Of a stretch of DNA of 64,000 bases, positions 8,198-47,695 are shown piece by piece. The stretch covers positions 23,693,141-23,757,140 of the forward strand of contig CP136065.1 of NCBI GenBank assembly GCA_032622095.1, read 5' to 3'. Origin of the DNA: Siphonodentalium dalli. Taxonomy: Eukaryota; Mollusca; Scaphopoda; Gadilida; Siphonodentaliidae. The notes beneath the pieces are model-generated. The model made no database searches. It had not been told where the DNA came from and saw only the letters and a list, made by a program, of their open reading frames with translations. The translations under genes were made by a program, and so were the position numbers. Every line of letters begins with the position of its first letter. Positions within the stretch are counted from its first letter, which is position 1.

Positions 8198-8310
8198 TGT
8201 TTTTGTTTTTAAACATATTTTATTTGTTCATAAATTAAATTAGTTTATGAAAAAAGGGATTGGAGGACAAGTGCTAAATAACTTAGAATACCCTCCTCTC
8301 AGTTGAAGTT
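8198..8310 (-). mobile_element. LINE-A 3' tail, 5'-truncated
   Basis: Read on the minus strand it has GAGGGTATTCTAAG, a small hairpin (AAGT/ACTT pairing), TTGTCCTCCAATCCC, then AATAAAATATGTTTAAA. It matches the tail at 42463-42560 closely. No coding part is left. Confidence 0.6.
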
Positions 8311-16400: not shown

Positions 16401-16897
16401 TTGTTCCTTATTTTGTTCTTTTAAAAATCGTGTGTGTATATAAGTTATATTCTTCTTATGTTTTCCATGTCCTTTTGACTATCAGTTTGAATGTTTGACC
16501 ATGCAATGAGCTAATTCAGCTGCCTTCCACAAGGTATACAATTAGTCGCAATTAAGAGACTTCTCAAAAGGCATTTTTTTGAAAAATAGAGAGTTGTTTC
16601 AAACGAGAGATATTTTCTATTGACAAGAGCCTATGAAACTTTTCGCGCGAAGGATTTTCCCAGTAATATTTTTGGGATATAGCTAGTAGGCCAAAGCGAT
16701 GCTATAACAAAAGTATCGTTATATTTCCTAAAGTTGTCATTTTACGGTGTGTTATTGATCTGAACAAATGAAGGAAATGCCATTTTGTGTAGAAAACATT
16801 CAAAACATACATACTGTGAACTAGTTTATTAATGGCACTCTTGGTTGAAGCAAACGGACAATTCAAACCAGGCTATGCATATCGTTTTTCAAACACC

Positions 16898-18126
16898 AGA
16901 ACAGCCATGATTAAAACAGTATAAAACAGAACAGCCATGATTAAAACAGTATAAAACAGAACAGCCATGATTAAAACAGTATAAAACAGAACAGCCATGA
17001 TTAAAACAGTATAAAACAAGAACAGCCATGATTAAAACAGTATAAAATAGAACAGCCATGATTAAAACAGTATAAAATAGAACAGCCATGATTAAAACAG
17101 TATAAAACAGAACAGCCATGATTAAAACAGTATAAAACAGAACAGCCATGATTAAAACAGTATAAAATAGAACAGCCATGATTAAAACAGTATAAAACAA
17201 GAACAGCCATGATTAAAACAGTATAAAATAGAACAGCCATGATTAAAACAGTATAAAATAGAACAGCCATGATTAAAACAGTATAAAATAGAACAGCCAT
17301 GATTAAAACAGTATAAAACAAGAACAGCCATGATTAAAACAGTATAAAACAAGAACAGCCATGATTAAAACAGTATAAAACAGAACAGCCATGATTAAAA
17401 CAGTATAAAATAGAACAGCCATGATTAAAACAGTATAAAACAAGAACAGCCATGATTAAAACAGTATAAAATAGAACAGCCATGATTAAAACAGTATAAA
17501 ACAAGAACAGCCATGATTAAAACAGTATAAAATAGAACAGCCATGATTAAAACAGTATAAAATAGAACAGCCATGATTAAAACAGTATAAAATAGAACAG
17601 CCATGATTAAAACAGTATAAAACAAGAACAGCCATGATTAAAACAGTATAAAACAAGAACAGCCATGATTAAAACAGTATAAAACAGAACAGCCATGATT
17701 AAAACAGTATAAAATAGAACAGCCATGATTAAAACAGTATAAAACAAGAACAGCCATGATTAAAACAGTATAAAACAGAACAGCCATGATTAAAACAGTA
17801 TAAAACAGAACAGCCATGATTAAAACAGTATAAAACAAGAACAGCCATGATTAAAACAGTATAAAATAGAACAGCCATGATTAAAACAGTATAAAATAGA
17901 ACAGCCATGATTAAAACAGTATAAAACAGAACAGCCATGATTAAAACAGTATAAAACAGAACAGCCATGATTAAAACAGTATAAAACAAGAACAGCCATG
18001 ATTAAAACAGTATAAAATAGAACAGCCATGATTAAAACAGTATAAAATAGAACAGCCATGATTAAAACAGTATAAAACAGAACAGCCATGATTAAAACAG
18101 TATAAACAGAACAGCCATGATTAAAA
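16898..18126 (+). repeat. 30/31-bp minisatellite, ~40 units
   Basis: Unit ACAGCCATGATTAAAACAGT ATAAAACAGA. Three variants occur: ...AACAGA (30 bp), ...AATAGA (30 bp) and ...AACAAGA (31 bp). Because 30 is a multiple of 3, the minus strand reads as long decapeptide repeats (YTVLIMAVLF); these are not genes. Variant order shows a higher-order structure (see findings). Confidence 0.97.
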
Positions 18127-23819: not shown

Positions 23820-24299
23820 GTTAGGTCCAAATAAAACTTATTTCACACCTAAATAAAAGGTCGACCGATCACAGTGTCCCCCGCGTGGCAAGTCCCCCGC
23901 ATCGGCTTTGTTAAAGAAATTTAATAAAATGTTGAAATTTTCTAAGTCGAAAGGGTTAACAATTCCGTAAAAAAAATAAAACTCAACCTGTATCTTGATA
24001 TGACTGATCCACATACAAAATGTATTTGCAATTAAAGGATCCAAACTTGAGATATCATCCGGAAACCGAAAAAGTAAGACATTTTCTAAGTAATTAAAAG
24101 GTGGAAAAAGGGAAATAACTCCATAAAAGAACATCGGATCAAACCCAAAATTGCACCTGTGTTCTTGGTTGAGACACCTACATACAAAGTTTCAATCAAA
24201 TCGGATGATCATTACTGGAGTTATAATTCCGGACGGACGGGACGGACGCACACACGGACGGGCTGATTACAATAGTCCCCCAAAAATATTTGTTTCGGA
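23820..24299 (+). repeat. Divergent ~180-bp mollusc-type repeat
   Basis: Two related segments with AAGGGTTAACAATTCCGTAA or AAGGGAAATAACTCCATAAA, then CACCTGT, a TGATCCACATACAAA-like box and AATCGGATGATC. It ends in GGACGGACGGGACGGACGC. Such repeats are common in mollusc genomes in my experience. Non-coding. Confidence 0.5.
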
Positions 24300-24301
24300 G
24301 G

Positions 24302-27300
24302 ACTATAACTTCACCAGGAGCTTATTTCAGTACCATGAAATAACTTCACCATGAGCTTATTTCAGTCCCATGAAATAACTTCACCATGAGCTTATTTCAG
24401 TCTCATGAAATAACTTCACCATGAGCTTGTTTCAGTCCCATGAAATAACTTCACCATGAGCTTATATCATTCCCATGAAATAACTTCACCATGAGCTCAT
24501 TTCAGTCCCATGAAATAACTTCACCATGAGCTTATATCATTCCCATGAAATAACTTCACCATGAGCTCATTTCAGTCCCATGAAATAACTTCACCCTGAG
24601 CTTATATCATTCCCATGAAATAACTTCACCATGAGCTCATTTCAGTCCCATGAAATAACTTCACCATGAGCTTATATCATTCCCATGAAATAACTTCACC
24701 ATGAGCTCATTTCAGTCCCATGAAATAACTCCACCATGAGCTCATTTCAGTCCCATGAAATAACTTCACCATGAGCTTATTTCAGTACCATGAAATAACT
24801 TCACCATGAGCTTATTTCAGTCTCATGAAATAACTTCACCATGAGCTTATTTCAATCGCATGATATAACTTCACTATGAGCTTATTTCAGTCCCGTGAAA
24901 TAACTTCACCGTGAGCTTATTTCAGTCCCATGAAATAACTTCAATATGAGCTTATTTCAGTCCCATGAAATAACTTCACTATGAGCTTATTTCAGTCCCG
25001 TGAAATAACTTCACCATGAGCTTATTTCAGTCCCATGAAATAACTTCACCATGAGCTTATTTCAGTCCCATGAAATAACTTCACTATGAGCTTATTTTAG
25101 TCCCATGAAATAACTTCACCATGAGCTTATTTCAGTCCCATGAAATAACTTCACCATGAGCTTATTTCAGTCCCATGAAATAACTTCACTATGAGCTTAT
25201 TTCAGTCCCGTGAAATAACTTCACCCTGAGCTTATTTCAGTCCCATGAAATAACTTCACCATGAGCTTATTTCAGTCCCATGAAATAACTTCACTATGAG
25301 CTTATTTCAGTCCCATGAAATAACTTCACCATGAGCTTATTTCAGTCCCATGAAATAACTTCACCATGAGCTTATTTCAGTCCCATAAAATAACTTCACC
25401 ATGAGCTTACTTCAGTCCCATGATATAACTTCACTATGAGCTTATTTCAGTCCCATGAAATAACTTCACCACGAGCTTATTTCAGTCGCATGATATAACT
25501 TCACTATGAGCTTATTTCAGTCCCGTGAAATAACTTCACCGTGAGCTTATTTCAGTCCCATGAAATAACTTCAATATGAGCTTATTTCAGTCCCATGAAA
25601 TAACTTCACTATGAGCTTATTTCAGTCCCGTGAAATAACTTCACCATGAGCTTATTTCAGTCCCATGAAATAACTTCACCATGAGCTTATTTCAGTCCCA
25701 TGAAATAACTTCACTATGAGCTTATTTCAGTCCCATGAAATAACTTCACCATGAGCTTATTTCAGTCCCATGAAATAACTTCACCATGAGCTTATTTCAG
25801 TCCCATGAAATAACTTCACTATGAGCTTATTTCAGTCCCGTGAAATAACTTCACCCTGAGCTTATTTCAGTCCCATGAAATAACTTCACCATGAGCTTAT
25901 TTCAGTCCCATGAAATAACTTCACTATGAGCTTATTTCAGTCCCATGAAATAACTTCACCGTGAGCTTATTTCAGTCCCATGAAATAACTTCACCATGAG
26001 CTTATTTCAGTCCCATGAAATAACTTCACCATGAGCTTACTTCAGTCCCATGATATAACTTCACTATGAGCTTATTTCAGTCCCATGAAATAACTTCACC
26101 ACGAGCTTATTTCAGTCCCATGATATAACTTCAATATCAGCTTATTTCAGTCCCATGATATAACTTCACTGTGAGCTTATTTCAGTCCCATGAAATAACT
26201 TCACCACGAGCTTATTTCAGTCCCATGATATAACTTCAATATGAGCTTATTTCAGTCCCATGATATAACTTCAATATGAGCTTATTTCAGTCCCATGATA
26301 TAACTTCACCATGAGCTTATTTCAGTCCCGTGAAATAACTTCACCGTGAGCTTATTTCAGTCCCATGAAATAACTTCAATATGAGCTTATTTCAGTCCCA
26401 TGAAATAACTTCACTATGAGCTTATTTCAGTCCCGTGAAATAACTTCACCATGAGCTTATTTCAGTCCCATGAAATAACTTCACCATGAGCTTATTTCAG
26501 TCCCATGAAATAACTTCACTATGAGCTTATTTCAGTCCCATGAAATAACTTCACCATGAGCTTATTTCAGTCCCATGAAATAACTTCACCATGAGCTTAT
26601 TTCAGTCCCATGAAATAACTTCACTATGAGCTTATTTCAGTCCCGTGAAATAACTTCACCCTGAGCTTATTTCAGTCCCATGAAATAACTTCACCATGAG
26701 CTTATTTCAGTCCCATGAAATAACTTCACTATGAGCTTATTTCAGTCCCATAAAATAACTTCACCGTGAGCTTATTTCAGTCCCATGAAATAACTTCACC
26801 ATGAGCTTATTTCAGTCCCATGAAATAACTTCACCATGAGCTTACTTCAGTCCCATGATATAACTTCACTATGAGCTTATTTCAGTCCCATGAAATAACT
26901 TCACCACGAGCTTATTTCAGTCCCATGATATAACTTCAATATCAGCTTATTTCAGTCCCATGATATAACTTCACTGTGAGCTTATTTCAGTCCCATGAAA
27001 TAACTTCACCACGAGCTTATTTCAGTCCCATGATATAACTTCAATATGAGCTTATTTCAGTCCCATGATATAACTTCAATATGAGCTTATTTCAGTCCCA
27101 TGATATAACTTCACCATGAGCTTATTTCAGTCCCGTGAAATAACTTCACCATGAGCTTATTTCAGTCCCATGAAATAACTTCACTATGAGCTTATTTCAG
27201 TCCCATGAAATAACTTCAATATGAGCTTATTTCAGTCCCATGAAATAACTTCAATATGAGCTTATTTCAGTCCCATGAAATAACTTCACTATGAGCTTAT

Positions 27301-27303
27301 TTC
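24302..27303 (+). repeat. 35-bp minisatellite, ~86 units (3 kb)
   Basis: Unit TGAAATAACTTCACCATGAG CTTATTTCAGTCCCA. The first ~430 bp alternate two versions (TTATATCATTCCC and CTCATTTCAGTCCC), making 70-bp dimers. Further on, point variants (CGTG, CTATG, CAATATG, CACGAG, GATATAAC) mark blocks of 18 and 23 units. It starts at the end of the preceding GGACGG repeat and ends sharply at 27303. Confidence 0.97.
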
Positions 27304-33365: not shown

Positions 33366-34660
33366 GGTTTAAACAATATTTTATTTGAACTAAACAGAAC
33401 AGAATTACAAACAATAAATACATGACATATAATTTTAAAGTGTTCAAAAGAGGATTCGGCAACAAGCTTGTGGACTTTTGTTAAGTCCTATCATCAGAAA
33501 GGTGTTGTGTCTATATGGGGTGGGGACTTCTCGTTTAATGCCTCAGGGGCTCTATCTTAAAGGGGGCTTCGCGGATGAATATCGATAGGTTCGTAAGGCT
33601 TTCCTATTGCTTGTTTTGAACAGGCTGTTCAGTTTCAATGAATTGGGTCGGGTGTAATAATTTGGTTTAATGTATTTTTTCCTGAGATCAGTAACTTTGG
33701 TGCACTTCAAAAATAATGTGATATTCGTCTCCAAGGCCATTGTTACATAATTTACACTTTCTATCTTCGTGAGCTTGTCCAACACAGGAGCCTGTCTCGA
33801 TTGGAAGTCGGTGATTCCTAGTACGGAATTTCATCAGGCGTGAAACGACATTATGGTTGATGTGTGAAAGATATATTTCTCTGCCAAAGTCTGGCTTAAT
33901 TATTCTGTAAAGGGCCATCTTATTTGAATTCGCTATGCTTGCTGTCCATTCCTGTATGTATACGTCAGAGAGCCTGCGTTTCACCGCCGCGTTAAAAATA
34001 TCACGAGAGTGTATACTTTGGTTGAGCCAGTAGTACGATAGTCCCAAATGATCTAGTATGGTGTGTATGTTTTTTAACCATGCATTGGTTGGCTGTTTAC
34101 TGAGTGGGGGGGTGATACATACAGGTATATAATCTTAAAGGGATTCTCTCAGGTCCCGTCGTCACCAGCCTACCCCAAAACGTCAGAGTTCTAAGTTTTA
34201 TTTTCATCGATATTGGGAATATTCCCAACTCGCCGTACAGAAAGGGGGCGGGCGTGGTCTTCTTAAGGCCGAGTAAGAATTTTAGGAACCATAGTTCAAG
34301 TTTCTCGAAAGATGAAATATTTTCGCATCCCCAAATCTCGGATCCGTAGGTCATTATAGGCACTATGGCTTTTTCATATATGTCAATTACGCAGTCAGTT
34401 GTCATTTTATATTTCCTTACTCTACTAATGAGTGTATACATTGCTTTTAATTGCATCTTTACAACGCATATTCCTTTCTCGGCTATAATCGCCAGATTTC
34501 TTGAACCATGTTCCGAGGTATTTGTGTAATTGTCCACGATTTCAATGTTGCCCCCGTTTATTGAATAGGTTGGCATGCGTTTTTTCTTCTTGCGTCCGCC
34601 AAAAATCATTATCTTTGTTTTCGATAAGTGAATTTCAATTTCCACTGGTTACAGTATCTT
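33366..34660 (-). mobile_element. LINE-A 3' half: reverse-transcriptase C terminus and 3' UTR
   Basis: Minus strand: a frame to 34097 begins within the RT domain (IHLSKTKIMIFGGRKK, which follows the YADD box in relatives). It continues through IVPIMTYGSEIWGCE and LKFLLGLKKTTP, typical of CR1/Jockey-like ORF2. After a frame break, 34047-33688 reads RNHRLPIETG and CKLCNNGLGDEYHIIFE, a zinc knuckle whose last Cys is missing. The 3' UTR ends AAATATTGTTTAAACC at 33366. It is 5'-truncated where another LINE tail enters at 34661. Non-functional. Confidence 0.8.
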
Positions 34661-34880
34661 AGTGTAAACAATATTTAATTTTCGAACAGAACATTTAACA
34701 CATACAAACAAATTGACATAATATACAACACATGTTCAAAAACGGGGATTAGACAACAAGCCTGAAAGGCTTTTATCAAGTCTTTTCCTCGGAATAAAAA
34801 GTTTACCCTTGGTATCAGAATAGATACCATATAGGGTAAATTTAGCAGACGGGATATCATGTTAGATCCGAAAAAAATAT
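34661..34880 (-). mobile_element. LINE-A 3' tail inserted in another LINE
   Basis: Minus strand: AAGACTTGATAAAAGCCTTT, hairpin AAGCC-TTTCA-GGCTT, TTGTCTAATCCCC, then TTAAATATTGTTTACAC at 34661. It interrupts the LINE to its left right after CACTGGTTACAGTATCTT. Its own upstream limit (to the right) is unclear. Confidence 0.6.
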
Positions 34881-35207
34881 TGTTCTGGGAGGGGGTAGAG
34901 GGGTAGAGTTGTATACCATACATCAGCCAAATTGAAAGATGGGAGTGAAGCGAAGTACCGTATATATTTTTTTGTTACACAACTTTGATATTTAAAACAT
35001 ATACTATTTACGAACCATGGAAAATTCAAAATCAAATCGAATCGAAACGCATCGCGGCCCACATGGAGGAAATGCGAAAGAACAGAGTCAACCTACTTGT
35101 AATATTAATTAATATTAAGATAATTGGTTAAAATAATTGGTTAGAAGCGTACTTTAGCATTATTTGATGAAACAATGACTCAATTGCATGGAGAGTGGCC
35201 CAGTGAC

Positions 35208-35293
35208 ACGGAGAACGCATATTCCTTTCTCGGCTATAATCGCCAGATTTCTTGAACCATTTTCCGAGGTATTTGTGTAATTATCCACGATTT
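35208..35293 (-). mobile_element. Left part of a LINE-A copy split by the nanos block
   Basis: Matches RT sequence at 34463-34545 nearly base for base (ACGCATATTCCTTTCTCGGC onward) and ends with TAATTATCCACGATTT (35278-35293). The sequence resumes at 39614, 4.3 kb away, with the same 16 bases (one mismatch). Confidence 0.75.
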
Positions 35294-35485
35294 GGTGTAA
35301 ACAATATTTATTCCCAATACAAAACAAGATGAATATTTAACAAAAATGCTAATGGATGGGGTTGGGTGATTGGAAAGGGATGAGACAACAAGCCTATTGT
35401 GGCTTTTTTGTAAGTCCTCTCCCAGATCGCTTAAATTTTCCGAACTACATAGGGCCGTTCGGGCGTGTCAGACGGGAATTTTTCT
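35294..35485 (-). mobile_element. LINE-A 3' tail at the edge of nanos block 1
   Basis: On the minus strand: AGAAAAATTCCCGTCTGACA, hairpin AAGCC-ACAATA-GGCTT, then the terminal AATAAATATTGTTTACACC. It is almost identical to the last 190 bp of the element ending at 41594. The LINE 3' end abuts the 16-bp repeat at 35278, as expected for target-primed insertion. The other side is fused to the nanos block. Confidence 0.75.
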
Positions 35486-36053
35486 GAAATATTCAGAGCA
35501 GTCATGGAACTGTATCAGCGCATAAATTGACAAGAGGTGTCTTATGTATAACTTGTCAATGTGATTTTATGTTCTTTTGTTCAAACAAAATATTGTTTAC
35601 ACGAAAAACAAACGAATTATGTTTACATGGCTTGATTTCCAGTAAACATGTTGATGACTACGATAACTCGCTATTTCCGAGTTACATGTTATCTAAAATC
35701 AGCTTTAAATGTATATATAGATATATACAATTTTGCGTGATTTTGTCCTGATGTTACAACAAATAATCAAAACAAAACATTCCTGAACCATCACAAATCC
35801 GGCAACAAAATGACTTCCCATGTACATGTAACAGTTACAACACAGTGCGAACAATAATAATGCCGGTGCGCCAATTCAAAAACGAGTAAGGCAATTGATT
35901 GCACGTGGGGCAGCATAATAAACAATTGTGGTGAAAAATGTCCATTTGAACCTTCACAAAGAGTCATCTGTATTTAGAAATGGTGAGCAATATACAGGTT
36001 TTACATAGTGTGAACAAATTACAACTTTCTAATTTTTCGCGAAAGATTAAACC

Positions 36054-36110
36054 AAACGCTCTTTATTTTTAACATATCATGAATAATTCTAACAATAAAC
36101 GCTCTTTATT
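36054..36110. repeat. Paired AACGCTCTTTAT module upstream of nanos copy 1
   Basis: AAACGCTCTTTATT twice with AACATATCA between, as in the ~500-bp MITEs. About 1.3 kb before the start codon. Its match in block 2 is at 43144-43191, with 10 bp less spacing. Confidence 0.6.
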
Positions 36111-37285
36111 ATTGGATACTTCTAAATTATATGACGTAAACACGCCTTTCGATGGCGTATAAAGTCCATATCAACGTTTTTAACGAGTTAATCCAATATT
36201 TGATTATCACAGCACATGCAAAATTGTTTTATTATGTATACAATAGATTATTCCAGTTTCTGAATAGATGAGATGTAAATTTAAAATCTCGAGAGAAAAC
36301 ATGCTTACGCCTTAACATCAACATAGCTAGTGTGCGGTCAGACACACCCCCCCTTGCACTGCGCGATCTATCGTACTTTATTAACATTCTGTATTCTGTA
36401 TATATTTTTAAGCTTCGTGATAAATCCCCACATGTGTTTGTCACGATACCAAGTCCGACAATTCTCCCAAATCTTCTAAATGTTTGTGGCGTCGGAATGT
36501 ATAGACAGAAGACATAGCCTGTTACAAAGCCCAAAAAAAGTAAATATGAAATTACGGAGAGTTTCAGTGCATTTTCAGTTTGTATGCGCAACAGTCTTTT
36601 TTTTTTTTGCATCCATGCGTTAAGTCGTACCGCAGTTGAAGTAGTGATTCGTGGCCAGGCATCTGCAGAAAGTTCACAAATACAACCTCTAACATGAGTA
36701 ACAGGTCAGATTGTACACAAAAAATACAATCATTATATTTTAGTTATACCATTAAAAAGTCAATCACTAGTAAATCAGAGAATGACTGTTTAATGAAGAC
36801 CTGACAAAATATTTTAATGACACGGATTTCATTTTAAATTTAACGATATTTGACACTGTGCCATAATATAACGTAAAAATGCATTGGAAAAAGTTAGATT
36901 TAATAGCATATATCTTTATTATTATACAAGTTATGCGTGTACATGAATGTATGTAATAACATATCGCAAATTGTACCAAAAAGATGAATAAAGATTCGGG
37001 GCCAGGTGCTCGAAAACATCCAAGAATATCCCCCCCTCCCTTGTGTCAAACCGTTGTCACTTAGATCAAAGTAATAAAACACCGCTCGAGTGAGAACTGT
37101 GAACTCCCAAAGAGTGATAACGAACGACGCCGAAAATTGCGAAGTGGCTGTCAAAACATCTCGTTTGACCTGGGTCCACAGTCGGCGTTCTTGTCAATTC
37201 AATACAATTTTATGTTTTCACAAGGTCAAAGGAATACCGCATCGTGGCTACGCCCATGACAAGCGTGAAATAATTCTACCCACCC

Positions 37286-37327
37286 TTTAAATACCTGGAC
37301 TGAGGTGAAAAAAATTATATCAGTTTT
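37286..37327 (+). promoter_or_regulatory. nanos: Candidate core promoter of nanos copy 1
   Basis: TTTAAATA at 37286-37293 is followed 34 bp later by an initiator-like TCAGTTTT (37320-37327), about 60 bp before the ATG. Spacing is slightly long for TATA-initiator pairs. The arrangement is unchanged in copy 2 (44377 and 44411). Confidence 0.4.
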
Positions 37328-37383
37328 CATACTCCTTAGAATCTGTACTAAATCGTGTGAACTCTAAATTGTTAATTAAAACA

Positions 37384-38019
37384 ATGGCCGGAAAGAATTA
37401 CTCGCCGTGGGACGATTATTTCGGTTTTAAGCACCTTATGTTCGATTCGAGAGATAGCGACGACGAAATGTTTGGTCGTGATTCAGACATACCAACCGAC
37501 GAAAAGAGCGAATCAGATGTTGCTGCCGCTTTAGAAAAGTTGCAAGCTAGTGTCGCATATCATGACACTTTGGACAAACTTGCTACATTATCAGTGTCAC
37601 CTCGCCAACGTGAACCAATGTATTTACCAGTGTCAACTCGTCACCACGAACCAATGTCTATAGCAACATCAACTCGTCTTCGTGAACCAATGTGCTTACC
37701 AGTTTCACCTCGCCATCATGAACCAATGCGCGTAGCAGCATCACTTCCCCATCATGAACCAAAGTATGTACCAATTCCACCTCGACATACAACGATGACT
37801 CGACCTCATCTGGCTCTTTCGCCAACCTCCAGGATTGACATTCTATGTGTGTTCTGTCGCAAGAACGGAGAGACGGAAGAATTCTACACGGCCCACAAGT
37901 TAAAGGACTCAAAGGGCAAAGTTCACTGCCCTGTGCTGAGGAAATATGTGTGCCCGAAATGTGGTGCGACCGGTGATGGAGCCCATACGATCGGACACTG
38001 CCCAGATAGACGACAATAA
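37384..38019 (+). CDS. nanos: Nanos RNA-binding translational repressor, copy 1 (intronless)
   Basis: 211 codons from ATG in a strong context (AACAATGG); an upstream GTG is not used. Residues 1-20 (MAGKNYSPWDDYFGFKHLMF) resemble the NOT1-interacting motif (W-x-DY) by which Nanos recruits the CCR4-NOT deadenylase. Residues 21-60 are acidic. Residues ~71-130 are five or six 12-residue repeats of the type VSPRHHEPM. Residues 155-206 form the Nanos zinc finger: C155, C158, H171, C182 then C190, C193, H201, C206 (C-x2-C-x12-H-x10-C, C-x2-C-x7-H-x4-C). All metal ligands are present, with KYVCPKCGATGDGAHTIGHC as signature. Nanos acts with Pumilio on target mRNAs, mainly in germline and stem cells. 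The frame is intact. Confidence 0.95.
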   Translation: MAGKNYSPWDDYFGFKHLMFDSRDSDDEMFGRDSDIPTDEKSESDVAAALEKLQASVAYHDTLDKLATLSVSPRQREPMYLPVSTRHHEPMSIATSTRLREPMCLPVSPRHHEPMRVAASLPHHEPKYVPIPPRHTTMTRPHLALSPTSRIDILCVFCRKNGETEEFYTAHKLKDSKGKVHCPVLRKYVCPKCGATGDGAHTIGHCPDRRQ

Positions 38020-38054
38020 AGGAACACCGGGTGATCATCGTGTACATTATACCA

Positions 38055-38190
38055 TGACGTTATTTGTGCTATGTTTGTGATAACAATCACATTATTTGTG
38101 CTAACATTGGTGATAACCAGTTTATATCACAATGTGTCTTTTCGTCCATGCCACATATACAGGTGTCTTTTCGTCCATGCCACATATATA
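38055..38190 (+). repeat. Tandem duplications in the nanos 3' UTR
   Basis: Two modules are each duplicated: ATTATTTGTGCTA plus TTGGTGATAAC (~37 bp, 38055-38120) and GTGTCTTTTCGTCCATGCCA plus CATATA (~29 bp, 38132-38190). Both duplications recur in copy 2 (45146-45281), so they predate the block duplication. Confidence 0.7.
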
Positions 38191-38641
38191 GGTCTACGTG
38201 CATAAAAATACCCTGTTTGATTTCATATTCCAAATTACTATGGTTATAAGTACATCGGCAAAAAAGACCTGGGACGCCTTTGGGTGACTCCTTCCGCCTT
38301 TCGATTGTTTTTCTGCGAAGGAGTCCACAACACAGGGGCGCGTCCACGTCTGTGCCAATTTAGGCACATTAATTAACGCCACATAGTTAGCCTTGATATA
38401 GTAAGTTCATGAACCTTTTGACAAATAGCCATCAATTTGTTCATTTTGTAGACATGCAGCGAAAATATTGGAAACTTCGTTTTTAATATAAACAAATCAC
38501 TGCATTCATCATAGAAAATACTGTTTTAGTAACTTGATAAATGCGTTTTCATTTGACATTTTCGCCTTAAGTATTTCATGTTTTGACCGTTTTGAATAAC
38601 GATAGTGCTTGTGTGTGGCAATGGTTTCTAGATTAACACCC

Positions 38642-38693
38642 TGTATATATGTTATTTGTTCTATGTTTTGTATATATCCTTGTATAAAATAAA
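38642..38693 (+). promoter_or_regulatory. nanos: Two Pumilio-type sites and poly(A) signal, nanos copy 1
   Basis: UGUAUAUA (consensus UGUANAUA) at 38642-38649 and 38669-38676, then AATAAA at 38688-38693. This implies a ~690-nt 3' UTR. The spacing is preserved in copy 2. Suggests Pumilio control of nanos mRNA; inferred from motif and position. Confidence 0.65.
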
Positions 38694-39613
38694 CTTATTT
38701 TATTTGGTATATTCGGTCTCTTTGTCGATATAAAATAGTTAAACGTATCATACCGGTAAATGTCCCAATAGGGTAACTAGAACATGGGTTATGGAAATTA
38801 GGACAAACAATGGCAACATTGGTCTTGATGCCATTAAAAGAACAGTATTTGTGTTGGTTTAAGCGATAGAGGAATCTAAACCTGGGGCCAAACCCCAGGC
38901 CTTTAACGATTCTGGTGCAATACAGAGGCTATTTGTATATTCCCTTTACCCAAGAATATTAGTTTCGAACCATTGAGCCTATCCATCGGGATTTTAATGG
39001 TCAGGTGCAGTTTTAGCCAAGAACCCAAAAGTCAAAACACCACACGACGAAGTGCGTTAATCTGTGTTACCATTATTATCCAATAATCTACCCGGTGTTC
39101 ATTCATGACCGACCAAATAATAATGTTATAGGGTTTGTTCAGAACCAAAATTTGGCTTTAAATACTGCCTAAACTGCATGCGACCAATTTTGTATTACGG
39201 AATTTTATGCTTTTATTTCCTTGAAATTTGTCATTATATATTTTTTTCTTGATGTGCATGTTCACATATATAATTACACCTCACACTCTGTAATTTCTGG
39301 TCTTCTCAATAAATTCTGACATGCTCTTCTGTGTCCCTGCCTCGCCTCCAGTTTTCATTTCTTGTTTCTATGGATCTTGTTCTGCCTCACTACCATTTGC
39401 TCCTACTAGCAATCAAGTAGGACCGTGTCATTGTCAAGGGAGATGGCTTCAAATAAACGAAGGGCGTATTGCTTAATCCCATGTTTCTTGTGCTAAATTT
39501 GTATCTATATTGTAATTATATATTTGAATGTCCACAGAGGGAAAATAAATACCGTTTAAACTAATATTGATATAAGGCTAATCTGAAAAGAAACATAAGT
39601 AACACAAATGCAG

Positions 39614-39930
39614 TAATTGTCCACGATTTCAATGTTGCCAAAAATCTTTATCTTTGTTTTCGATAAGTTAACTTTCAATTTCCACTGGTTACAGTATCTT
39701 GAAAAGGTACACAATGATGTTTGCAGCTCTGATTCCGTATTTGCCAAGATGACTGTATCATCAGCGTAAATTAAGAGAAACAGTTTAGTGTATATATTTA
39801 TAGCAGTATCGGTAAACGTTGTATAATCAATCCCGCTGCAGCTATGTGATTTCATGTAACCCTCAGTTCATTGCGATAGAGGACGAATAAAATGGGGGAG
39901 AGGCCATCACCTTGATTTACGTCTGGAAGG
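39614..39930 (-). mobile_element. Right part of the split LINE-A copy (RT domain)
   Basis: Minus strand: QGDGLSPILFVLY, then LIYADDTVILANTE (the catalytic YADD box of the polymerase) and LKVNLSKTKIKIFG, followed by NIEIVDNY. Frame breaks and a ~45-bp deletion show it is dead. It continues the LINE that stops at 35293. TAATTGTCCACGATTT occupies 39614-39629. Confidence 0.8.
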
Positions 39931-39959
39931 GAGTGGAGCGAGGCAGTCATCATTTGCTT

Positions 39960-40323
39960 TGTCTGTATTAGTTCCTCTCTGTCAGACGTTAACACGAGTG
40001 AGTTGTGTGGTCGTGTCTTCGGGTGCAGCTGCCCTCGTGTTAATGCCGGCGAGTGAGACGGTTTTGGATTAGGCTCAGGACGGATTATGGAGCTAATCCC
40101 CGACGCCGCGTTGGCTGCAATGCAAAGAAGTCAGATAGTTGACTCTGTTAGTTGGAATCTCCAAGCTAACAGGGGCTATTTGGTTCTTTGCATTGAATTC
40201 CGGACAGAGGATGCTGGTATCCAGATGTCTTCTGCCCGGGACGGGAACGCCGAGACATGCCGTAACTTGAAGAAGGGGCCTCCAAAAAGAAAAACACCAG
40301 CCAAACCAACCAGTATGGGATAA
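39960..40323 (+). other. Unrecognised GC-richer open frame
   Basis: Frame 40087-40323 (78 codons) reads MELIPDAALAAMQRSQIVDS and ends in a basic stretch (KKGPPKRKTPAKP). It lies just before a LINE C-terminal fragment in the same orientation, so it may be a scrap of a retroelement ORF1. No domain recognised. Confidence 0.3.
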
Positions 40324-40342
40324 TTGTCCTAATTATCTCAGC

Positions 40343-41594
40343 AATGATATAGAGAAAATACAATTTGAAATGGCAAGGATCGTTACTGGAGCGACGAACA
40401 GCGCCAGTAAAGAGAGCCTACTATTAAGATACTGGTTGGGAGACCCTGGCATCAAGGAGGAAAAAACAAAAGCTTATACAATTCCATAAAATAGTTAATA
40501 GTACAGCACCCGTGTACCTACGAAATTATATTTGTCACTCTGAAAACCAAACCGGTTATAATCTTAGACATCATGCAATACGACTACCATTGGACGCCAC
40601 AAAGGATATTTATAAAGATACATTTTTACCCTCTACAATAAGCGATTGGAATAGACTGCCAGAGTGTGTAAAAAATTGTACCAACCTGGACAAGGTTAAA
40701 GAGTCACTTGCTGACGATCGTATATACACACATCCATACTACTATCATTGCCATAGTCGCAAATCCCAAGTATACTACACACGATTGAGACTGAAATGTA
40801 GTAATTTGAACTTCGACCTCATGACCAATTTTGTTAGGCTCGACCCATATTGTGCATGCGGTGCTGTTGAAACAGCCCATCATTACCTGTTAGAATGCCA
40901 TTTATACCAGGCATAAAGATTGGAATTGCTATCATCTCTACCAAACATAATATTATCAGAAAGAACCCTACTCGAGGGTTCACCCGAAAGTTCCATTAGG
41001 GAAAATCATAGTATTTTCGAGGCCGCACAAAGATACATAATTAGTACAAAACGATTCTAAACGTAATACTATGTCACATGTCTTCTGCAATTGAGTCATA
41101 TATAAAGTCATACATAATGTCATAATTCGGAAAGCCTGACTGCCCAGCTAACTCATGTAGTCTCTGTACGCCAAGTTATACACAATTGACATATAATTAT
41201 ACAGCCGAATGTTAAACTACCCCGCCCCCATTGACCATCCTATCTTTCTGACCTTTCTTAAACCTAACTACTCTCCTTTCGTCCCATTGGTTACCTTTAA
41301 TTCCCTAATCACACCCCACTCCAGTTCTTATCTTATCTCTTGTTATCTGTTGTTGAGTGCGATCTATATCAAAATAACCAATAAGTTATTTAAAGTACAA
41401 ACCAGAAAAATTCCCGTCTGACACGCCCGAACGGCCTCATGTAGTTCGGAAAATTTAAGCGATCTGGGAGAGGACTTACAAAAAAGCCACAATAGGCTTG
41501 TTGTCTCATCCCTTTCCAATCACCCATACTCATCCATTAGCATTTTTGTAAAATATTCATCTAGTTTTGTATTGGGAATAAATATTGTTTACAC
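40343..41594 (+). mobile_element. LINE 3' fragment: RT C terminus, zinc knuckle, 3' UTR
   Basis: 40343-40500 gives EKIQFEMARIVTGAT, then a frameshift into KLIQFHKIVNSTAPVYLRNY. The frame 40512-40916 continues with TFLPSTISDWNRLPE, RLRLKCSNLNFDL and CACGAVETAHHYLLEC. These are hallmarks of the C terminus of CR1/Jockey-like ORF2. The 3' UTR runs to 41594 with hairpin AAGCC-ACAATA-GGCTT (41484-41499) and terminal AATAAATATTGTTTACACC. 5'-truncated and frameshifted. Confidence 0.85.
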
Positions 41595-41595
41595 C

Positions 41596-42394
41596 AAACG
41601 GAGGAGGGACGCCGCCAGACGGGCGAAATGGATGAAGATGGGGGTGGCGTTGATCTGCCGGTCACCCCTCCCCGTGTGGTTCAGCCGACGTCCGCTGTCA
41701 CAGCCGGTGGGTCGGAGTTGTCTGAGAGACGCCCAGACGACCGACCCGTCTGGAGACAGGCGACATCAGACCAGCTAGCAGGGACTCCGTGGATCTGCCG
41801 GAGGTCCCTGCTGTTGTCACGGAGACTGCTGAGGTCATCACACCAGCAGTACCATGTGCCAGTGCCGAAGCCAGAGGAGACAGGGACGCGGACACCACCC
41901 CCGGTGTTCCTGCCGCTGACTTCGGGGTGGAGATGGACACGTCGACACATTGGACACCGGAATACCATCACAGCCCGGTGTCCCCCATCTCCACCAGCAT
42001 CATCAACAACAACAACAGCTACAACACCAGCAGTAAATCCACCTACTCCGTCAGTTCGGATGCTGAACAACATGAGATGGAGATCATGCTCTTTGCGACA
42101 AAGTACGTCGCCGAACAGACAAGAATGACAGCAGCACTTATGGCTTACATCGATTCCAAGTGTCAGCGATCTCAAAGACCAACAACAACCGAGCGAAAAA
42201 AAAAATCAAGAACAAAGTACAAGAAATAAAGAAAACAAATAATATGCCTAGATAAATTTTTTCACGATTCACTGATATCTCATCACCATCACATCACCTC
42301 CAAGTGGGTTGTATGAGAGGGGTTTCAAATCTTCCCTGGGCCCAGTCCCAAAATCCCCAATAAATAAACCTTGTTTTACGCCAATCAAGCTATC
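41596..42394 (+). pseudogene. GC-rich frameshifted ORF with poly(A) signal (possible retroelement ORF1)
   Basis: Begins right after the LINE end. The ATG at 41628 opens MDEDGGGVDLPVTPPRVV. A frame change around 41725-41780 is needed to continue in the frame reading SVDLPEVPAVVTETAEV, EYHHSPVSPISTS and a basic end (RKKKSRTKYKK) with stop at 42227. AATAAA follows at 42359. High GC and CpG against an AT-rich background suggest a recent arrival or a different source. Product not recognised; it could be a retroelement ORF1 or a retrocopy of a cellular gene. Confidence 0.45.
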
Positions 42395-42462
42395 GAAATA
42401 TTCAGAGCAGTCATGGAACTGTATCAGTGCATAAATTGAGGTGTCTTATGTATAACTTGTCA

Positions 42463-42560
42463 GGGAGAGGAGGGTATTCTAAGTGATTTAGCACTTGTCC
42501 TCCAATCCCTTTTGTCATAAACTAATTTAATTTATGAACAAATAAAATATGTTTAAACAA
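42463..42560 (+). mobile_element. 98-bp LINE-A tail inserted in block 2
   Basis: Interrupts ACTTGTCA/ATGTGATT, which is continuous in block 1 at about 35547. Contains hairpin AAGTG-ATTTAG-CACTT (42481-42496), TGTCCTCCAATCCC and AATAAAATATGTTTAAACA. Target-site duplication is minimal or absent. Confidence 0.8.
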
Positions 42561-42779
42561 ATGTGATTTTATGTTCTTTTGTTCAAACAAAATATTGTTT
42601 ACACGAAAAACAAACGAATTATGTTTACATGGCTTGATTTCCAGTAAACATGTTGATGACTACGATAACTCGCTATTTCCGAGTTACATGTTATCTAAAA
42701 TCAGCTTTAAATGTATAAATGTATATATAGATATATACAATTTTGCGTGATTTTGTCCTGATGTTACAACAAATAATCA

Positions 42780-42847
42780 TATATTTCTACATGTATATTA
42801 TGTTTATGTCATATGTTTGATTTTTTGAAACAAATATTGTTTACACC
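42780..42847 (+). mobile_element. ~67-bp LINE-A tail with 12-bp target-site duplication
   Basis: AACAAATAATCA at 42768-42779 and 42848-42859 flanks an insert ending CAAATATTGTTTACACC. Block 1 has the empty site, one AACAAATAATCA at 35758-35769. This fixes the LINE 3' end at ...TTTACACC. Confidence 0.9.
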
Positions 42848-43143
42848 AACAAATAATCAAAAGAAAACATTCCTGAACCATCACAAATCCGGCAATAAAA
42901 TGACTTCCCATGTACATGTAACAGTTACAACACAGTGCGAACAATAATAATGCCGGTGCGCCAATTCAAAAACGAGTAAGGCAATTGATTGCACGTGGGG
43001 CAGCATAATAAACAATTGTAGTGAAAAATGTCCATTTGAACCTTCACAAGGAGTCATCTGTATTTAGAAATGATGAGCAATATACAGGTTTTACATAGTG
43101 TGAACAAATTACAACTTTCTAATTTTTCGCGAAAGATTAAGCC

Positions 43144-43191
43144 AAACGCTCTTTATTTTTAGCATATCATGAATAATAAACGCTCTTTATT
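43144..43191. repeat. Paired AACGCTCTTTAT module upstream of nanos copy 2
   Basis: Same pair as at 36054 with 10 bp lost between the two motifs. Confidence 0.6.
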
Positions 43192-44376
43192 ATTGGATAC
43201 TTCTAAGTTATATGACGTAAACACGCCTTTCGATGGCATATAAAGTCCATATCAACGTTTTTAACGAGTTAATCCAATATTTGATTCACACAACACATGC
43301 AATTGTTTTATTAGCTATACAATAGATTATTCCATTTTCTGAATAGTTGAGATGTAAATTTAAAATCTCGAGAGAAAACATGCTTACGCCTTAACATCAA
43401 CATAGATAGTGTGCGGTCAGACACAAACACCCCACTTGCACTGCGCGATCTATCGTACTTTATTAACATTCTGTATTCTATATATATTTTTAAGCTTCGT
43501 GATAAATCCCCATATGTGTTTGTCACGATACCAAGTCCGACAATTCTCCCAAATCTTCTAAATGTTTGTGGCGTCGGAATGTATAGACAGAAGACATAGC
43601 CTCTTACAAAGCCCAAAAAAAGTTAATATGAAATTACGGAGAGTTTCAGTGCATTTTCAGTTTGTATGCGCAAGTTCGCAACAGTCTTTTGTTTGCATCC
43701 ATGCGTTAAGTCGTACCGCAGTTGAAGTAGTGATTCGGGGCCAGGCTTCTGCAGAAAGTTCACAAATACAACCTCTAACATGAGTAACAGGTCAGATTGT
43801 ACACAAAAAATACAATCATTATATTTTAGTTATACCATTAAAAAGTCAATCACTAGTAAATCAGAGAATGACTGTTTAATGATGACCTGACAAAATATTT
43901 TAATGACACGGATTTCATTTTAAATTTAACGATATTTGACACTGTGCCATAATATAACGTAAAAATGCGTTGGAAAAAGTTAGATTTAATAGCATATATC
44001 TTTATTATTATACAAGTTATGCATGTACATGAATGTATGTAATAACATATCGCAAATTGTACCAAAAAGATGAATAAATTATTAAAAAGATTCGGGGCAA
44101 GGTGCTCGAACACATCCAAGAATCTTCCCCCTCCCTTGTGTCAAACCGTTGTCACTTCAAAGTACTAAAACACCGCTCGAGTGAGAACTGTGAACTCCCA
44201 AAGAGTGATAACGAACGACGCCGAAAATTGCGAAGTGGCTGTCAAAACATCTCGTTTGACCTGGGTCCACAGTCGGCGTTCTTGTCAATTCAATACCATT
44301 TGATGTTTTCACAAGGTCAAAAGAATACCGCATCGTGGCTACGCCCATGACAAGCGTGAAATAATTCTACCCACCC

Positions 44377-44418
44377 TTTAAATACCTGGACTGAGGTGAA
44401 AAAAATTATATCAGTTTT
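44377..44418 (+). promoter_or_regulatory. nanos: Candidate core promoter of nanos copy 2
   Basis: TTTAAATA at 44377-44384 and TCAGTTTT at 44411-44418, as in copy 1. The ~200 bp upstream (CTCGAGTGAGAACTGTGAAC and following) are also well conserved between copies. Confidence 0.4.
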
Positions 44419-44474
44419 CATACTCCTTAGAATCTGTACTAAATCGTGTGAACTCTAAATTGTTAATTAAAACA

Positions 44475-45110
44475 ATGGCCGGAAAGAATTACTCGCCGTG
44501 GGACGATTATTTCGGTTTTAAGCACCTTATGTTCGATTCGAGAGATAGCGACGACGAAATGTTTGGTCGTGATTCAGACATACCAACCGACGAAAAGAGC
44601 GAATCGGATGTTGCTGCCGCTTTAGAAAAGTTGCAAGCTAGTGTCGCATATCATGACACTTTGGACAAACTTGCTACATTATCAGTGTCGCCTCGCCAAC
44701 GTGAACCAATGTATTTACCAGTGTCAACTCGTGACCACGAACCAATGTCCATAGCAACATCAACTAGTCTTCGTGAACCAATGTGCTTACCAGTTTCACC
44801 TCGCCATCATGAACCAATGCACGTAGCAGCATCACTTCCCCATCGTGAACCAAAGTATGTACCAATTCCACCTCGACATACAACGATGACTCGACCTCAT
44901 CTGGCTCTTTCGCCAACCTCCAGGATTGACATTCTATGTGTGTTCTGTCGCAAGAACGGAGAAACGGAAGAATTCTACACGGCCCACAAGTTAAAGGACT
45001 CAAAGGGCAAAGTTCACTGCCCTGTGCTGAGGAAATATGTGTGCCCGAAATGTGGTGCGACCGGTGATGGAGCCCATACGATCGGACACTGCCCAGATAG
45101 ACGACAATAA
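44475..45110 (+). CDS. nanos: Nanos RNA-binding translational repressor, copy 2 (intronless)
   Basis: Same 211-residue layout as copy 1: NOT1-motif-like N terminus, acidic stretch, 12-residue repeat linker, full CCHC-CCHC zinc finger. By eye it differs at 8 coding bases: 4 silent and 4 replacements (H87D, R98S, R116H, H124R), all four inside the repeat linker. The N-terminal motif and zinc finger are unchanged in protein sequence. Both copies therefore look functional or very recently functional. It has its own promoter sequence and 3' UTR, so separate expression is possible. Confidence 0.95.
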   Translation: MAGKNYSPWDDYFGFKHLMFDSRDSDDEMFGRDSDIPTDEKSESDVAAALEKLQASVAYHDTLDKLATLSVSPRQREPMYLPVSTRDHEPMSIATSTSLREPMCLPVSPRHHEPMHVAASLPHREPKYVPIPPRHTTMTRPHLALSPTSRIDILCVFCRKNGETEEFYTAHKLKDSKGKVHCPVLRKYVCPKCGATGDGAHTIGHCPDRRQ

Positions 45111-45735
45111 AGGAACACCGAGTGATCATCGTGTACATTATACCATGACGTTATTTGTGCTATGTTTGTGATAACCATCACATTATTTGTGCTAACATTG
45201 GTGATAACCAGTTTATATCACAATGTGTCTTTTCGTCCATGCCACATATACAGGTGTCTTTTCGTCCATGCCACATATATGGGTCTACGTGCATAAAAAT
45301 ACCCTGTTTGATTTCATATTCCAAATTACTATGGTTATAAGTACATCGGCAAACAAGATCTGGGACGCCTTTGGGTGACTCCTTCCGCCTTTCGATTGTT
45401 TTTCTGCGAAGGAGTCCACAACACAGGGGTGCGTCCACGTATGTGCCAATTTAGGCACATTAATTAACGCCACATAGTTAGCCTTGATATAGTAAGTTCA
45501 TCTGAACCTTTTGACAAATAGCCATCAATTTGTTCATTTTGTAGACATGCAGCGAAAATATTGGAAACTTATTTTTTAATATAAACAAATCACTGCATTC
45601 ATCATAGAAAATACTGTTTTAGTAACTTGATAAATGCGTTTTCATTTGACATTTTCGCCTTCAGTATTTCTTGTTTTGACCGATTTTGAATAACGATAGT
45701 GCTTGTGTGTGGCAATGGTTTCTAGATTAACACCC

Positions 45736-45787
45736 TGTATATATGTTATTTGTTCTATGTTTTGTATATATCCTTGTATAAAATAAA
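45736..45787 (+). promoter_or_regulatory. nanos: Two Pumilio-type sites and poly(A) signal, nanos copy 2
   Basis: TGTATATA at 45736-45743 and 45763-45770; AATAAA at 45782-45787. Same spacing as copy 1. Confidence 0.65.
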
Positions 45788-46721
45788 GTTATTTCATTTG
45801 GTATATTCGGTCTCTTTGTCGATATAAAATAGTTAAACGTATCATACAGGTAAATGTCCCAATATGGTAACTAGAACATGGGTTATGGAAATTCGGACAA
45901 ACAATGGCAACATTGGTCTTGATGCCGCTAAAAGAACAGTATTTGTGTTGGTTTAGGCGATAGAGGAATCTAAACCTGGGGCCAAACCCCAGGCCCTTAA
46001 CGATTCTGGTGCAATGCAGCGGCTATTTGTATATTCCCTTTACCCAAGAATATTAGTTTCGAACCATTGAGCCTATCCATCGGAATTTTAATGGTCAGGT
46101 GCAGTTTTAGCCAAGAACCCAAAAGTCAAAACACAACACGACGAAGTGCGTTAATTTGTGTTACCATTATTATCCAATAATCTACCCGGTGTTCATTCAT
46201 GACCGACCAAATAATAATGCTATATGGTTTGTTCAGAACCAAAATTTGGCTTTAAATACTGCCTAAACTGCATGCGACCAATTTTGTATTACGGAATTTT
46301 ATGCTTTTATTTCCTTGAAATTTGTTATTATATTTTTTTTCTTTGAATTTAATTATTATGCATGTTCACATATATAATTACACCTCACACTCTGTACTTT
46401 CTGGTCTTCTCATTAAATTCTGACATGCTCTTCTGTCTCCATGCCTCGCCTCCAGTTTTCATTTCTTGTTTTATATGGATCTTGTTCTGCCTCACTACCA
46501 TTTATTTGCTCCTACTAGCAATCAAGTAGGACCGTGTCATTGTCAAGGGAGATGGCTTCAAATAAACGAAGGGCGTATTGCTTAATCCCATGTTTCTTGT
46601 GCTAAATTTGTTTCTATATTGTAATTATATATTTGAATGTCCACAGAGGGAAAATAAATACCGTTTAAACTAATATTGATATAAGGCTAATCTGAAAAGA
46701 AACAGAAGTAACACAAATGCA

Positions 46722-47695
46722 GACATATCTCACAGATCACTTCAGGTGACGCGGCTAGATTCCATTTGCATGAACCGCTTTTTCTCCTCCGTGGTCGTGA
46801 CACATTCGTGCAAGTGAATTCCCCACTGAACGGATGTTGTTGTGTTATTTTGTATCGAATGTATGTTGTGTCAAACCTCTCGCCCTCTCTCTCTCTCTCT
46901 CTCTCGTTCATTCTCTCTCTCACCCTCACCCTTAAAGACACGGTTGGCCTTGGCGGTGGGTATCCTGTGAAAATACCTCCACCCGTCAAAAACCGCCACA
47001 AACAGAAAGAACATCAAAATGTAGATAGACTTTATCCGTATACAAATAAGAAATATCGCATAAACGGTATGTTATGGTCATATTTTTGACCATTGTTATG
47101 TAAAGTAAAAGCGTAAAAAGTTAGTTTTCTGGTGTTTGTTTATATTATGATGGTAAGCATAAAGAGCGTTCTTTGTTGGTGAATACCTGATATGGAACTA
47201 ATAAAGAGCGTTTATGCCATTTGTATGTGATTAGCCAGTAGCATTGTGCTATCTTCTGTAACACAATCAGGCTCTTGCTTAGGTAAAATATAGTAGGTCT
47301 TTATGATAACATGCTGTTTACGCGATGGTCATGGTATATATGAACGGAACTGTATGCGTTTTACTGTTTTTATGTTTACGGTGTTTGGAACAAATATGAA
47401 TATTTTCGACAATTAAGGCCGCACGTGCCTTTAACTTCCGTATATATTACAATGTTATACCCGTATCTCAATCCTAAACATGTAATAACATTCCAGTCAA
47501 ACAAAACTATATATCCCGTCTGCTTTACCTCAAGTGATATTTCTGTCACTTGAGGTAACATTTATTACACGAGAGAGGACTTTAAAAAAGCATTTTGCTT
47601 GTTGTCCAATCCTCTTCATAAATCTCTATGTGTCTACATGTATATTGTGTCTGTGTTATATGTTTGATTTAAAAAAAATAAATATTGTTTACACC
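46722..47695 (+). mobile_element. LINE-A 3' insertion with 12-bp target-site duplication, carrying a MITE
   Basis: AACACAAATGCA at 46710-46721 is repeated at 47696-47707, right after the canonical LINE end AAATATTGTTTACACC. Hairpin AAGCA-TTT-TGCTT is at 47588-47600. The 974-bp insert holds a (CT)n run (46886-46920), the complete MITE C, and a 13-bp stem TTACCTCAAGTGA with its inverse at 47526-47558. No RT coding is visible. Confidence 0.75.
46932..47434 (+). mobile_element. TTAA-ended ~500-bp MITE, copy C (complete)
   Basis: TTAAAGACACGGTTGGCCTT at the left and the inverse AAGGCCGCACGTGCCTTTAA at the right. 503 bp. Contains the paired AAAGAGCGTT motifs. Nested in a LINE insertion, so it is younger than that insertion. 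Confidence 0.9.

What the first reader, a model, noticed from the sequence alone, without database searches (positions are those of the whole stretch)
35278..39629. nanos block 1 sits inside a LINE, flanked by a 16-bp target-site-like repeat and led by a LINE 3' tail
A LINE reading frame is broken after TAATTATCCACGATTT (35278-35293) and resumes with TAATTGTCCACGATTT (39614-39629). Between lie a 192-bp LINE tail, ending exactly at its canonical ...TTTACACC next to the repeat, and the 4.1-kb nanos block. This is the layout of target-primed reverse transcription that started on a LINE RNA and then acquired 4.1 kb of neighbouring sequence (template switch, antisense read-through RNA, or repair synthesis). 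It would be a LINE-mediated duplication of an entire gene with promoter and 3' flank, which differs from an ordinary retrocopy.
Basis: partly seen in the sequence, partly recalled or inferred. Interest (0 to 1): 0.8.

Follow-up and report, generated by a model that had tools for sequence, protein, structure and literature searches.

The report
LINE-started local copy of nanos
A jumping gene that was inserting itself just upstream of a nanos germ-cell gene seems to have led the repair machinery into copying the whole neighbouring gene, leaving two intact nanos genes side by side in a genome that carries nanos in very many copies.

Summary
One minus-strand LINE copy (the host) is split at 35293/39614 by a 4,320-bp insert with 16-bp flanking repeats (one mismatch). 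The insert is a 5'-truncated tail (T, about 192 bp) of another LINE family, then a 4,127-bp nanos block, 97.7% identical to block 2.

New: block 1 does not start at random. Its first ~20 bp, and the left edge of block 2 (42395), lie inside the same host LINE, 356 bp beyond the insertion point. Both blocks share the host-LINE/nanos-flank joint (42414|42415), and at block 2 the host LINE runs across 42395 without a break. So block 2 is the donor, block 1 the copy, and the template was local.

Best reading: target-primed reverse transcription of T, whose cDNA end then switched to the adjacent locus, copied 4.1 kb by repair synthesis and was joined to the other target end. Chief rival: a tandem duplication plus a separate LINE insertion with a 356-bp deletion. 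An RNA template is less likely. DNA versus RNA template and one versus two events are inferred, not shown.

Outside the finding: this 2.2-Gb animal genome holds at least 150 open nanos zinc-finger loci, 126 of them in three tandem arrays.

The parts
33499..34660 (-). host LINE, copy A (3' part of an RT-encoding LINE, frame decayed)
   Evidence: 93-95% to L042, L045, L050 in one piece; family carries RVT_1, E 1.3e-33 on L042
34661..35213 (-). element X, a dispersed element with a LINE-like 3' end at its left, inserted in the host and flanked by a 198-bp host duplication (34463-34660 / 35214-35293+39630-39700)
   Evidence: 39 other genome matches to 34673-35213, 11 of them over the whole query; L084 matches 34659-35214, so both ends are real; host copies A and B share a TG insertion and one further base
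35214..35293 (-). host LINE, left piece of copy B
35278..35293 (.). left 16-bp target repeat TAATTATCCACGATTT
35294..35485 (-). T: 5'-truncated LINE tail, 3' end at 35294; 35486 is a G shared with the next part
   Evidence: 39 other genome matches listed; 5 substitutions of 192 from the majority of 20 other copies, which themselves have 0-6
35486..39613 (+). block 1, copy of 42395-46722 (35486 is the shared G)
   Evidence: 97.7% to block 2, 4013/4106
35486..35505 (-). about 20 bp of host LINE at the start of block 1 (h1801-1820)
   Evidence: same letters as 42395-42414, which match L042 h1801-1820
37384..38019 (+). nanos gene, copy 1, intact 211-aa frame
   Evidence: PF05741 E 7.6e-24
39614..39629 (.). 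right 16-bp target repeat TAATTGTCCACGATTT
39614..39921 (-). host LINE, middle piece of copy B, lacking 48 bp
39922..42367 (+). Y: another element (39922-40301 + about 41598-42367) broken by a T-family LINE (about 40302-41597); 13-bp target repeat 39909-39921 / 42368-42380, one mismatch; strand from its frames, not tested
   Evidence: L070 1501-1892 (93%) and 1896-2526 (68%, to 42265); L002; repeat
42368..42414 (-). host LINE, right end of copy B, running across the donor start 42395
   Evidence: 100% to L042, L045, L050 and 98% to L043, L057 over 47 bp
42395..46722 (+). block 2, the donor; has two stretches absent from block 1 (98 bp at 42463, 80 bp at 42767)
44475..45110 (+). nanos gene, copy 2, intact 211-aa frame
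   Evidence: PF05741 E 7.9e-24

Best explanation
A T-family LINE nicked the host LINE upstream of nanos at ...CCACGATTT and began target-primed reverse transcription (inferred from the tail, the TTT target and the flanking repeat). After about 192 bases the cDNA 3' end left its RNA and paired, with at most one base of microhomology, at host position h1801, 356 bp further on in the same LINE copy: on the sister chromatid, the homologue, or the same duplex. Repair synthesis (synthesis-dependent strand annealing or microhomology-mediated break-induced replication) copied from there through the whole nanos gene to 46722 (4.1 kb). The new end was then joined to the other target end, whose staggered cut gave the 16-bp repeat. 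Shown: the parts, their order, the joints, the donor and its direction. Inferred: that it was a single event and that the template was DNA.
For: The split host LINE is continuous in other copies. The tail family's target signature: flush 9-13 bp repeats in 12 of 15 testable loci, left flank TTT in 14 of 19. The donor edge 42395 lies inside the host LINE, and both blocks share the joint 42414|42415. Host copies A and B are one LINE copy by shared changes. Among the 40 scored candidates of a genome search, only block 2 matches block 1 along its length. An RNA-derived copy landing within a few kb of its own donor in a 2.2-Gb genome would be very unlikely by chance (inference). Ages fit one event: T has 5/192 substitutions; the blocks differ by 2.3%, up to 4% in some stretches. 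An independent duplication joint would fall 7-20 bp from the T joint with a chance of about 0.1-1%.
Against: The 16-bp repeat is longer than all 12 flush repeats measured for T-family copies (9-13 bp). T's 5 substitutions are somewhat more than expected from half the mean block divergence (P about 0.07 at 1.1%, 0.34 at 2%). No second example of T followed by copied neighbouring DNA was seen among the 19 other T loci, though only about 3 kb of each was read and not every joint was inspected. No outgroup or empty-site individual was available. Published proximal repair duplications reach only 619 bp in human (PMC2671141, abstract and passages).
Confidence: 0.6

Rival explanations
1. Two separate events: an ordinary tandem duplication (unit 39614-46722, joint 39613|39614), and a T-family LINE insertion in the left copy of the host LINE that removed h1445-1800. 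The 16-bp repeat is then just leftover LINE.
For: Explains every joint with known processes and needs no template switch. The 16-bp length is outside the 9-13 bp range measured; 3 of 15 testable T copies have no flush repeat, so insertions without one occur.
Against: The two joints would have to fall 16 bp apart by chance with the right polarity, about 0.1-1% depending on the span allowed.
Confidence: 0.24
2. RNA template: the reverse transcriptase jumped from T RNA to a long antisense nanos transcript reading into the host LINE, or (twin priming) the right target end primed on a long sense transcript.
For: Template switching to RNA is proposed for L1 chimeras (PMC13174262, abstract and passages). 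The nanos frame has no visible intron, so introns cannot decide.
Against: Nanos lies antisense to T, whereas that paper expects switched RNAs in LINE sense and opposite orientation only from twin priming. I saw no poly(A) at either joint by eye. The copy includes 1.9 kb upstream and 1.6 kb downstream of the frame, and landed in its own donor locus.
Confidence: 0.1
3. Assembly artefact: two haplotypes of one nanos locus laid in tandem.
For: 2.3% divergence is within the range of allelic differences in some marine animals (recalled).
Against: Precise nested joints with target repeats, no N in the window, and block-specific insertions; a haplotype fold would not join T to h1801.
Confidence: 0.03

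Closest known systems
[quoted passage not shown] 2009, PMC2671141; abstract and passages read)
   Same: Copy of nearby DNA (<5 kb) pasted inside a repeat copy, microhomology common, sometimes a 4-21 bp target repeat; assigned by the authors to synthesis-dependent strand annealing
   Different: There at most 619 bp for proximal events, and none of 39 inspected proximal cases had a poly(A/T) trace of retrotransposition; here 4.1 kb with a whole gene and a LINE tail as the leading end
L1-bridged tandem duplication between sister chromatids in tumours (PMC7058536; passages read)
   Same: LINE cDNA joined to DNA of the same chromosome in direct orientation, short L1, endonuclease motif
   Different: There 22.6 Mb, somatic, with the L1 at the duplication boundary; here 4 kb, germ line, with the LINE at the outer left joint and none at the duplication joint 39613|39614
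L1 chimeras by RNA template switching or 5' transduction (PMC13174262; abstract and passages read)
   Same: Non-LINE sequence fused to the 5' end of a LINE, flanked by target repeats
   Different: There RNA sequences, mostly in LINE sense; here the gene is antisense to the LINE and comes with long flanks from the adjacent locus

Membership tests
LINE insertion by target-primed reverse transcription | 3' end of a LINE flush with the target, 5' truncated | tested here: met
   T starts at 35294, same 3' end as other copies
LINE insertion by target-primed reverse transcription | short target repeat at both ends of the insert | tested here: met
   16 bp, one mismatch; longer than the 9-13 bp of 12 other copies
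LINE insertion by target-primed reverse transcription | insert consists of LINE sequence only | tested here: not met
   4.1 kb of nanos locus between T and the right repeat
Repair-mediated proximal duplication | donor within 5 kb on the same chromosome | tested here: met
   donor starts 2.8 kb from 39614 today, 356 bp in host LINE terms
Repair-mediated proximal duplication | no trace of retrotransposition in the insert | tested here: not met
   LINE tail leads the insert
Processed retrocopy | mRNA extent, poly(A) | tested here: not met
   1.9 and 1.6 kb beyond the frame included, no poly(A) seen at the joint
Processed retrocopy | introns lost | not testable with these tools
   frame is open without interruption in both copies; no transcript data
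Simple tandem duplication | end of one unit joined directly to start of the next, inner sequence kept | tested here: inconclusive
   joint 39613|39614 has that form, but h1445-1800 is replaced by T in the left copy

The most novel reading that the evidence does not exclude
Aborted LINE insertions seed tandem gene pairs in this genome: a LINE cDNA end primes repair copying of the adjacent gene, the direct pair then expands by unequal exchange, and this fed the amplification of nanos into arrays. (Against: the one array unit read shows no such LINE tail motif.)
Probability: 0.1. Interest if true: 0.85.

Novelty: new variant of a known kind. Interest (0 to 1): 0.55.

Why it matters
If a single event, it shows at base resolution how a LINE can duplicate a whole gene with its flanks, in direct orientation and ready for expansion by unequal exchange, without an mRNA intermediate. 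It joins two known processes (LINE target priming and repair copying of nearby DNA) in a germ line. The gene is nanos, a germ-cell regulator usually thought of as present in few copies (recalled), and this genome carries at least 150 open nanos zinc-finger loci, so the birth of new copies is a live question here.

Tried and rejected
Chance repeat: rejected, since the two 16-mers are the same stretch of one LINE. Block 1 as source of block 2: rejected, since the host LINE is continuous across 42395 (42368-42414) but is replaced by T left of 35486. Block 2 itself inserted with a target repeat: no shared 6-mer between the two short edge stretches compared, 51 and 75 bases. Third copy as donor: the only further long DNA relative listed is a broken relic on contig 4 (C4:124834147-124835593, 75-82%); chunk alignment found similarity to block 2 only at 44856-45045 and 45483-46060, so neither block edge is there. 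Using that relic, 4 differences are derived in block 1, 11 in block 2 and 1 unclear, of 738 positions compared; P of 4 against 11 is 0.12, so it says nothing firm. Dating T against the blocks did not separate one event from two; the 20 comparison copies were the best matches of the search or in the window, so they lean young. Target-repeat control: a search from one shifted position per locus gave scores of 4-10; L072's own score (10) equals its control and L006, L074 and L081 do not exceed theirs, so the 12 flush repeats rest also on their lying at the LINE's 5' end. L057 lacks a stretch near the 48-bp gap, but with other end points. A LINE tail motif was sought in the one contig-1 array unit read and not found. 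My notes give X as 34673-35213 with a 210-bp duplication; the correct values are 34661-35213 and 198 bp.
Full report
Place. It is an animal genome by its genes (nanos, LINEs; inference); I could not name the species. Window coordinates are used; h means the position in locus L042, a copy of the host LINE.

Observation. The two 16-mers are there, with one mismatch. Removing one of them and the insert gives a LINE stretch that aligns as one piece to 19 of 27 loci compared and, over a shorter stretch across the joint, to 3 more; 2 match in two pieces and 3 on one side only. The family carries a reverse transcriptase (RVT_1, E 1.3e-33 on L042). The LINE is on the minus strand, so its 3' side is to the left.

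The tail. Of the 39 other listed matches of the 35100-35477 query, 37 begin at 35287-35293 (the other two at 35277 and 35286), and all run to the end of the query. In the seven copies read first (L002-L008) the tail is the same up to ...TTTTTCTG or a near variant; six continue into the same LINE body, and L008 ends there with a 12-bp target repeat. In the window it switches at 35486/35487 to AAATATTCAGAG..., with one shared G. Of 19 other copies, 12 have a repeat of 9-13 bp flush with the LINE's 5' end (one, L007, with a mismatch), 3 have none (L006, L074, L081), and 4 run past the reference used for the 5' end (L002, L004, L073, L075); L079 and L080 share their flank and are probably one event. 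Fourteen of 19 left flanks end in TTT. The block 1 site (CGATTT) fits this; its 16-bp repeat is longer than the 12. I call T a LINE from its shared 3' end, variable 5' truncation and target repeats; the frame of the T-family copy in the window (40428-40916) had no Pfam match.

The blocks. 35486-39613 and 42395-46722 match at 4013 of 4106 ungapped positions, with identity from 95.9 to 99.5% by 300-column stretches. Block 2 has an extra 98 bp (93 bp of it also at 8208-8300, 98%) and an extra 80 bp that looks like a short LINE tail. Both nanos frames are intact: 211 aa, zf-nanos E 7.6e-24 and 7.9e-24. Eight codons differ, four silent and four not.

The key point. L042 matches the window in four pieces: h406-1564 to 33499-34660, h1367-1444 to 35214-35293, h1501-1786 to 39637-39921, and h1774-1820 to 42368-42414; the four other host copies tried in that call (L043, L045, L050, L057) show the same four. 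The last piece crosses the left edge of block 2 (42395 = h1801). So block 2 begins inside the host LINE, block 1 carries the same 20 bp of LINE and the same joint to nanos flank, and the insertion point (h1444) is 356 bp away in the same LINE copy. That it is the same copy is supported by a two-letter insertion (TG) shared by the two host duplicates, whose G is absent from 24 of 24 other copies and T from 23 of 24, and by one further base seen in 0 of 24. Since the host LINE is continuous at block 2 and cut at block 1, block 2 is the donor.

Nested history. Into the host LINE went X (34661-35213), a dispersed element with 39 other listed matches, 11 over the whole query, and with the same two ends in the one other copy checked (L084); it is flanked by a 198-bp duplication of the host. 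Also Y (39922-42367), with a 13-bp repeat, itself broken by a T-family LINE; and T + block 1. X and T + block 1 both left extra host or neighbour sequence behind, on very different scales. The relative order of Y and block 1 cannot be read from the sequence.

Mechanism. The cDNA strand of T is the window's plus strand, growing to the right from the nick. It continues with plus-strand nanos sequence. The template for that part was therefore minus-strand DNA or an antisense RNA; with twin priming a sense RNA is possible from the other end. A local DNA template explains why the copy sits in its own donor locus and why it includes 1.9 kb before and 1.6 kb after the frame. The model is the strand-annealing repair proposed for human proximal duplications (PMC2671141: abstract and passages), with a LINE cDNA as the searching end. 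The tumour study PMC7058536 (passages) shows that LINE cDNA can bridge sister chromatids, but there the LINE marks the duplication boundary; here the duplication joint 39613|39614 has no LINE, so two joints must be explained. That is why I keep a two-event rival at 0.24.

How strong is the link between T and the duplication? [quoted passage not shown] Against that stands the somewhat long repeat. I put one event with a DNA template at 0.6; the number is a judgement.

Outside the finding: nanos copy number. A whole-genome search for zf-nanos scored 150 of 349 candidates; all 150 pass the curated cut-off, and none of the listed rows has a stop inside (its 14 control genomes gave 0). By my count of those rows, 52 lie in contig 1:103.256-103.394 Mb, 46 of 51 spacings being 2508-2530 bp; one unit was read and closes at 2520 bp. 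Fifty-six lie in contig 1:129.378-129.733 Mb, 34 of 55 spacings being 2988-3010 bp, and 18 in contig 4:127.867-128.151 Mb. The three array proteins read have the finger pattern but different N-termini. The window pair is distant from them: beyond the pair the best listed matches are 70-71% over residues 120-209 on contig 5, 69% for the relic, and 42-61% for the other finger matches listed; the list is cut. Paper searches for such an expansion: six terms, 0 papers; four terms, 4 papers, 3 listed, listing only; nanos gene with retrotransposon and duplication, 1 paper, listing only; broader, 15 of 308 listed, listing only. None of the listed titles or abstract starts describes it; this does not show that it is unpublished.

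Limits. No relatives of this genome are held, so no outgroup, empty site or population test was possible. Genome counts are lower bounds, since only the best candidates are scored. The genome-wide uniqueness of the right flank 46723-46930 and of the T-block 1 joint was asked for but did not complete.

Noticed in passing
whole genome; window pair at 37384-38019 and 44475-45110; arrays on contig 1:103.26-103.39 and 129.38-129.73 Mb, contig 4:127.87-128.15 Mb: nanos is hugely amplified: 150 of 349 candidates scored, all over the zf-nanos cut-off and open, 126 of them in three tandem arrays with periods of about 2.5, 3.0 and 5.3/7.4 kb. Possibly more interesting than the finding itself.
   Followed up: partly
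34463-34660 / 35214-35293 + 39630-39700: Element X (34661-35213) is flanked by a 198-bp duplication of its target, far longer than usual for such insertions.
   Followed up: partly
L039, contig 4:124834147-124835593: Broken nanos relic with 3' flank similarity to the blocks, one finger cysteine replaced, interrupted by a LINE-like tail.
   Followed up: partly
39922-39960; contig 4:127.888-127.923 Mb: The first bases of element Y match four places inside the contig 4 nanos array; the array unit may contain this element.
   Followed up: no
36654-36992: A dispersed repeat of about 340 bp present in both blocks; it makes up most of the 40 scored genome matches of block 1.
   Followed up: no
24287-27303 and 16892-18126: Long tandem arrays with about 35- and 30-bp periods, seen in the self-comparison.
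   Followed up: no
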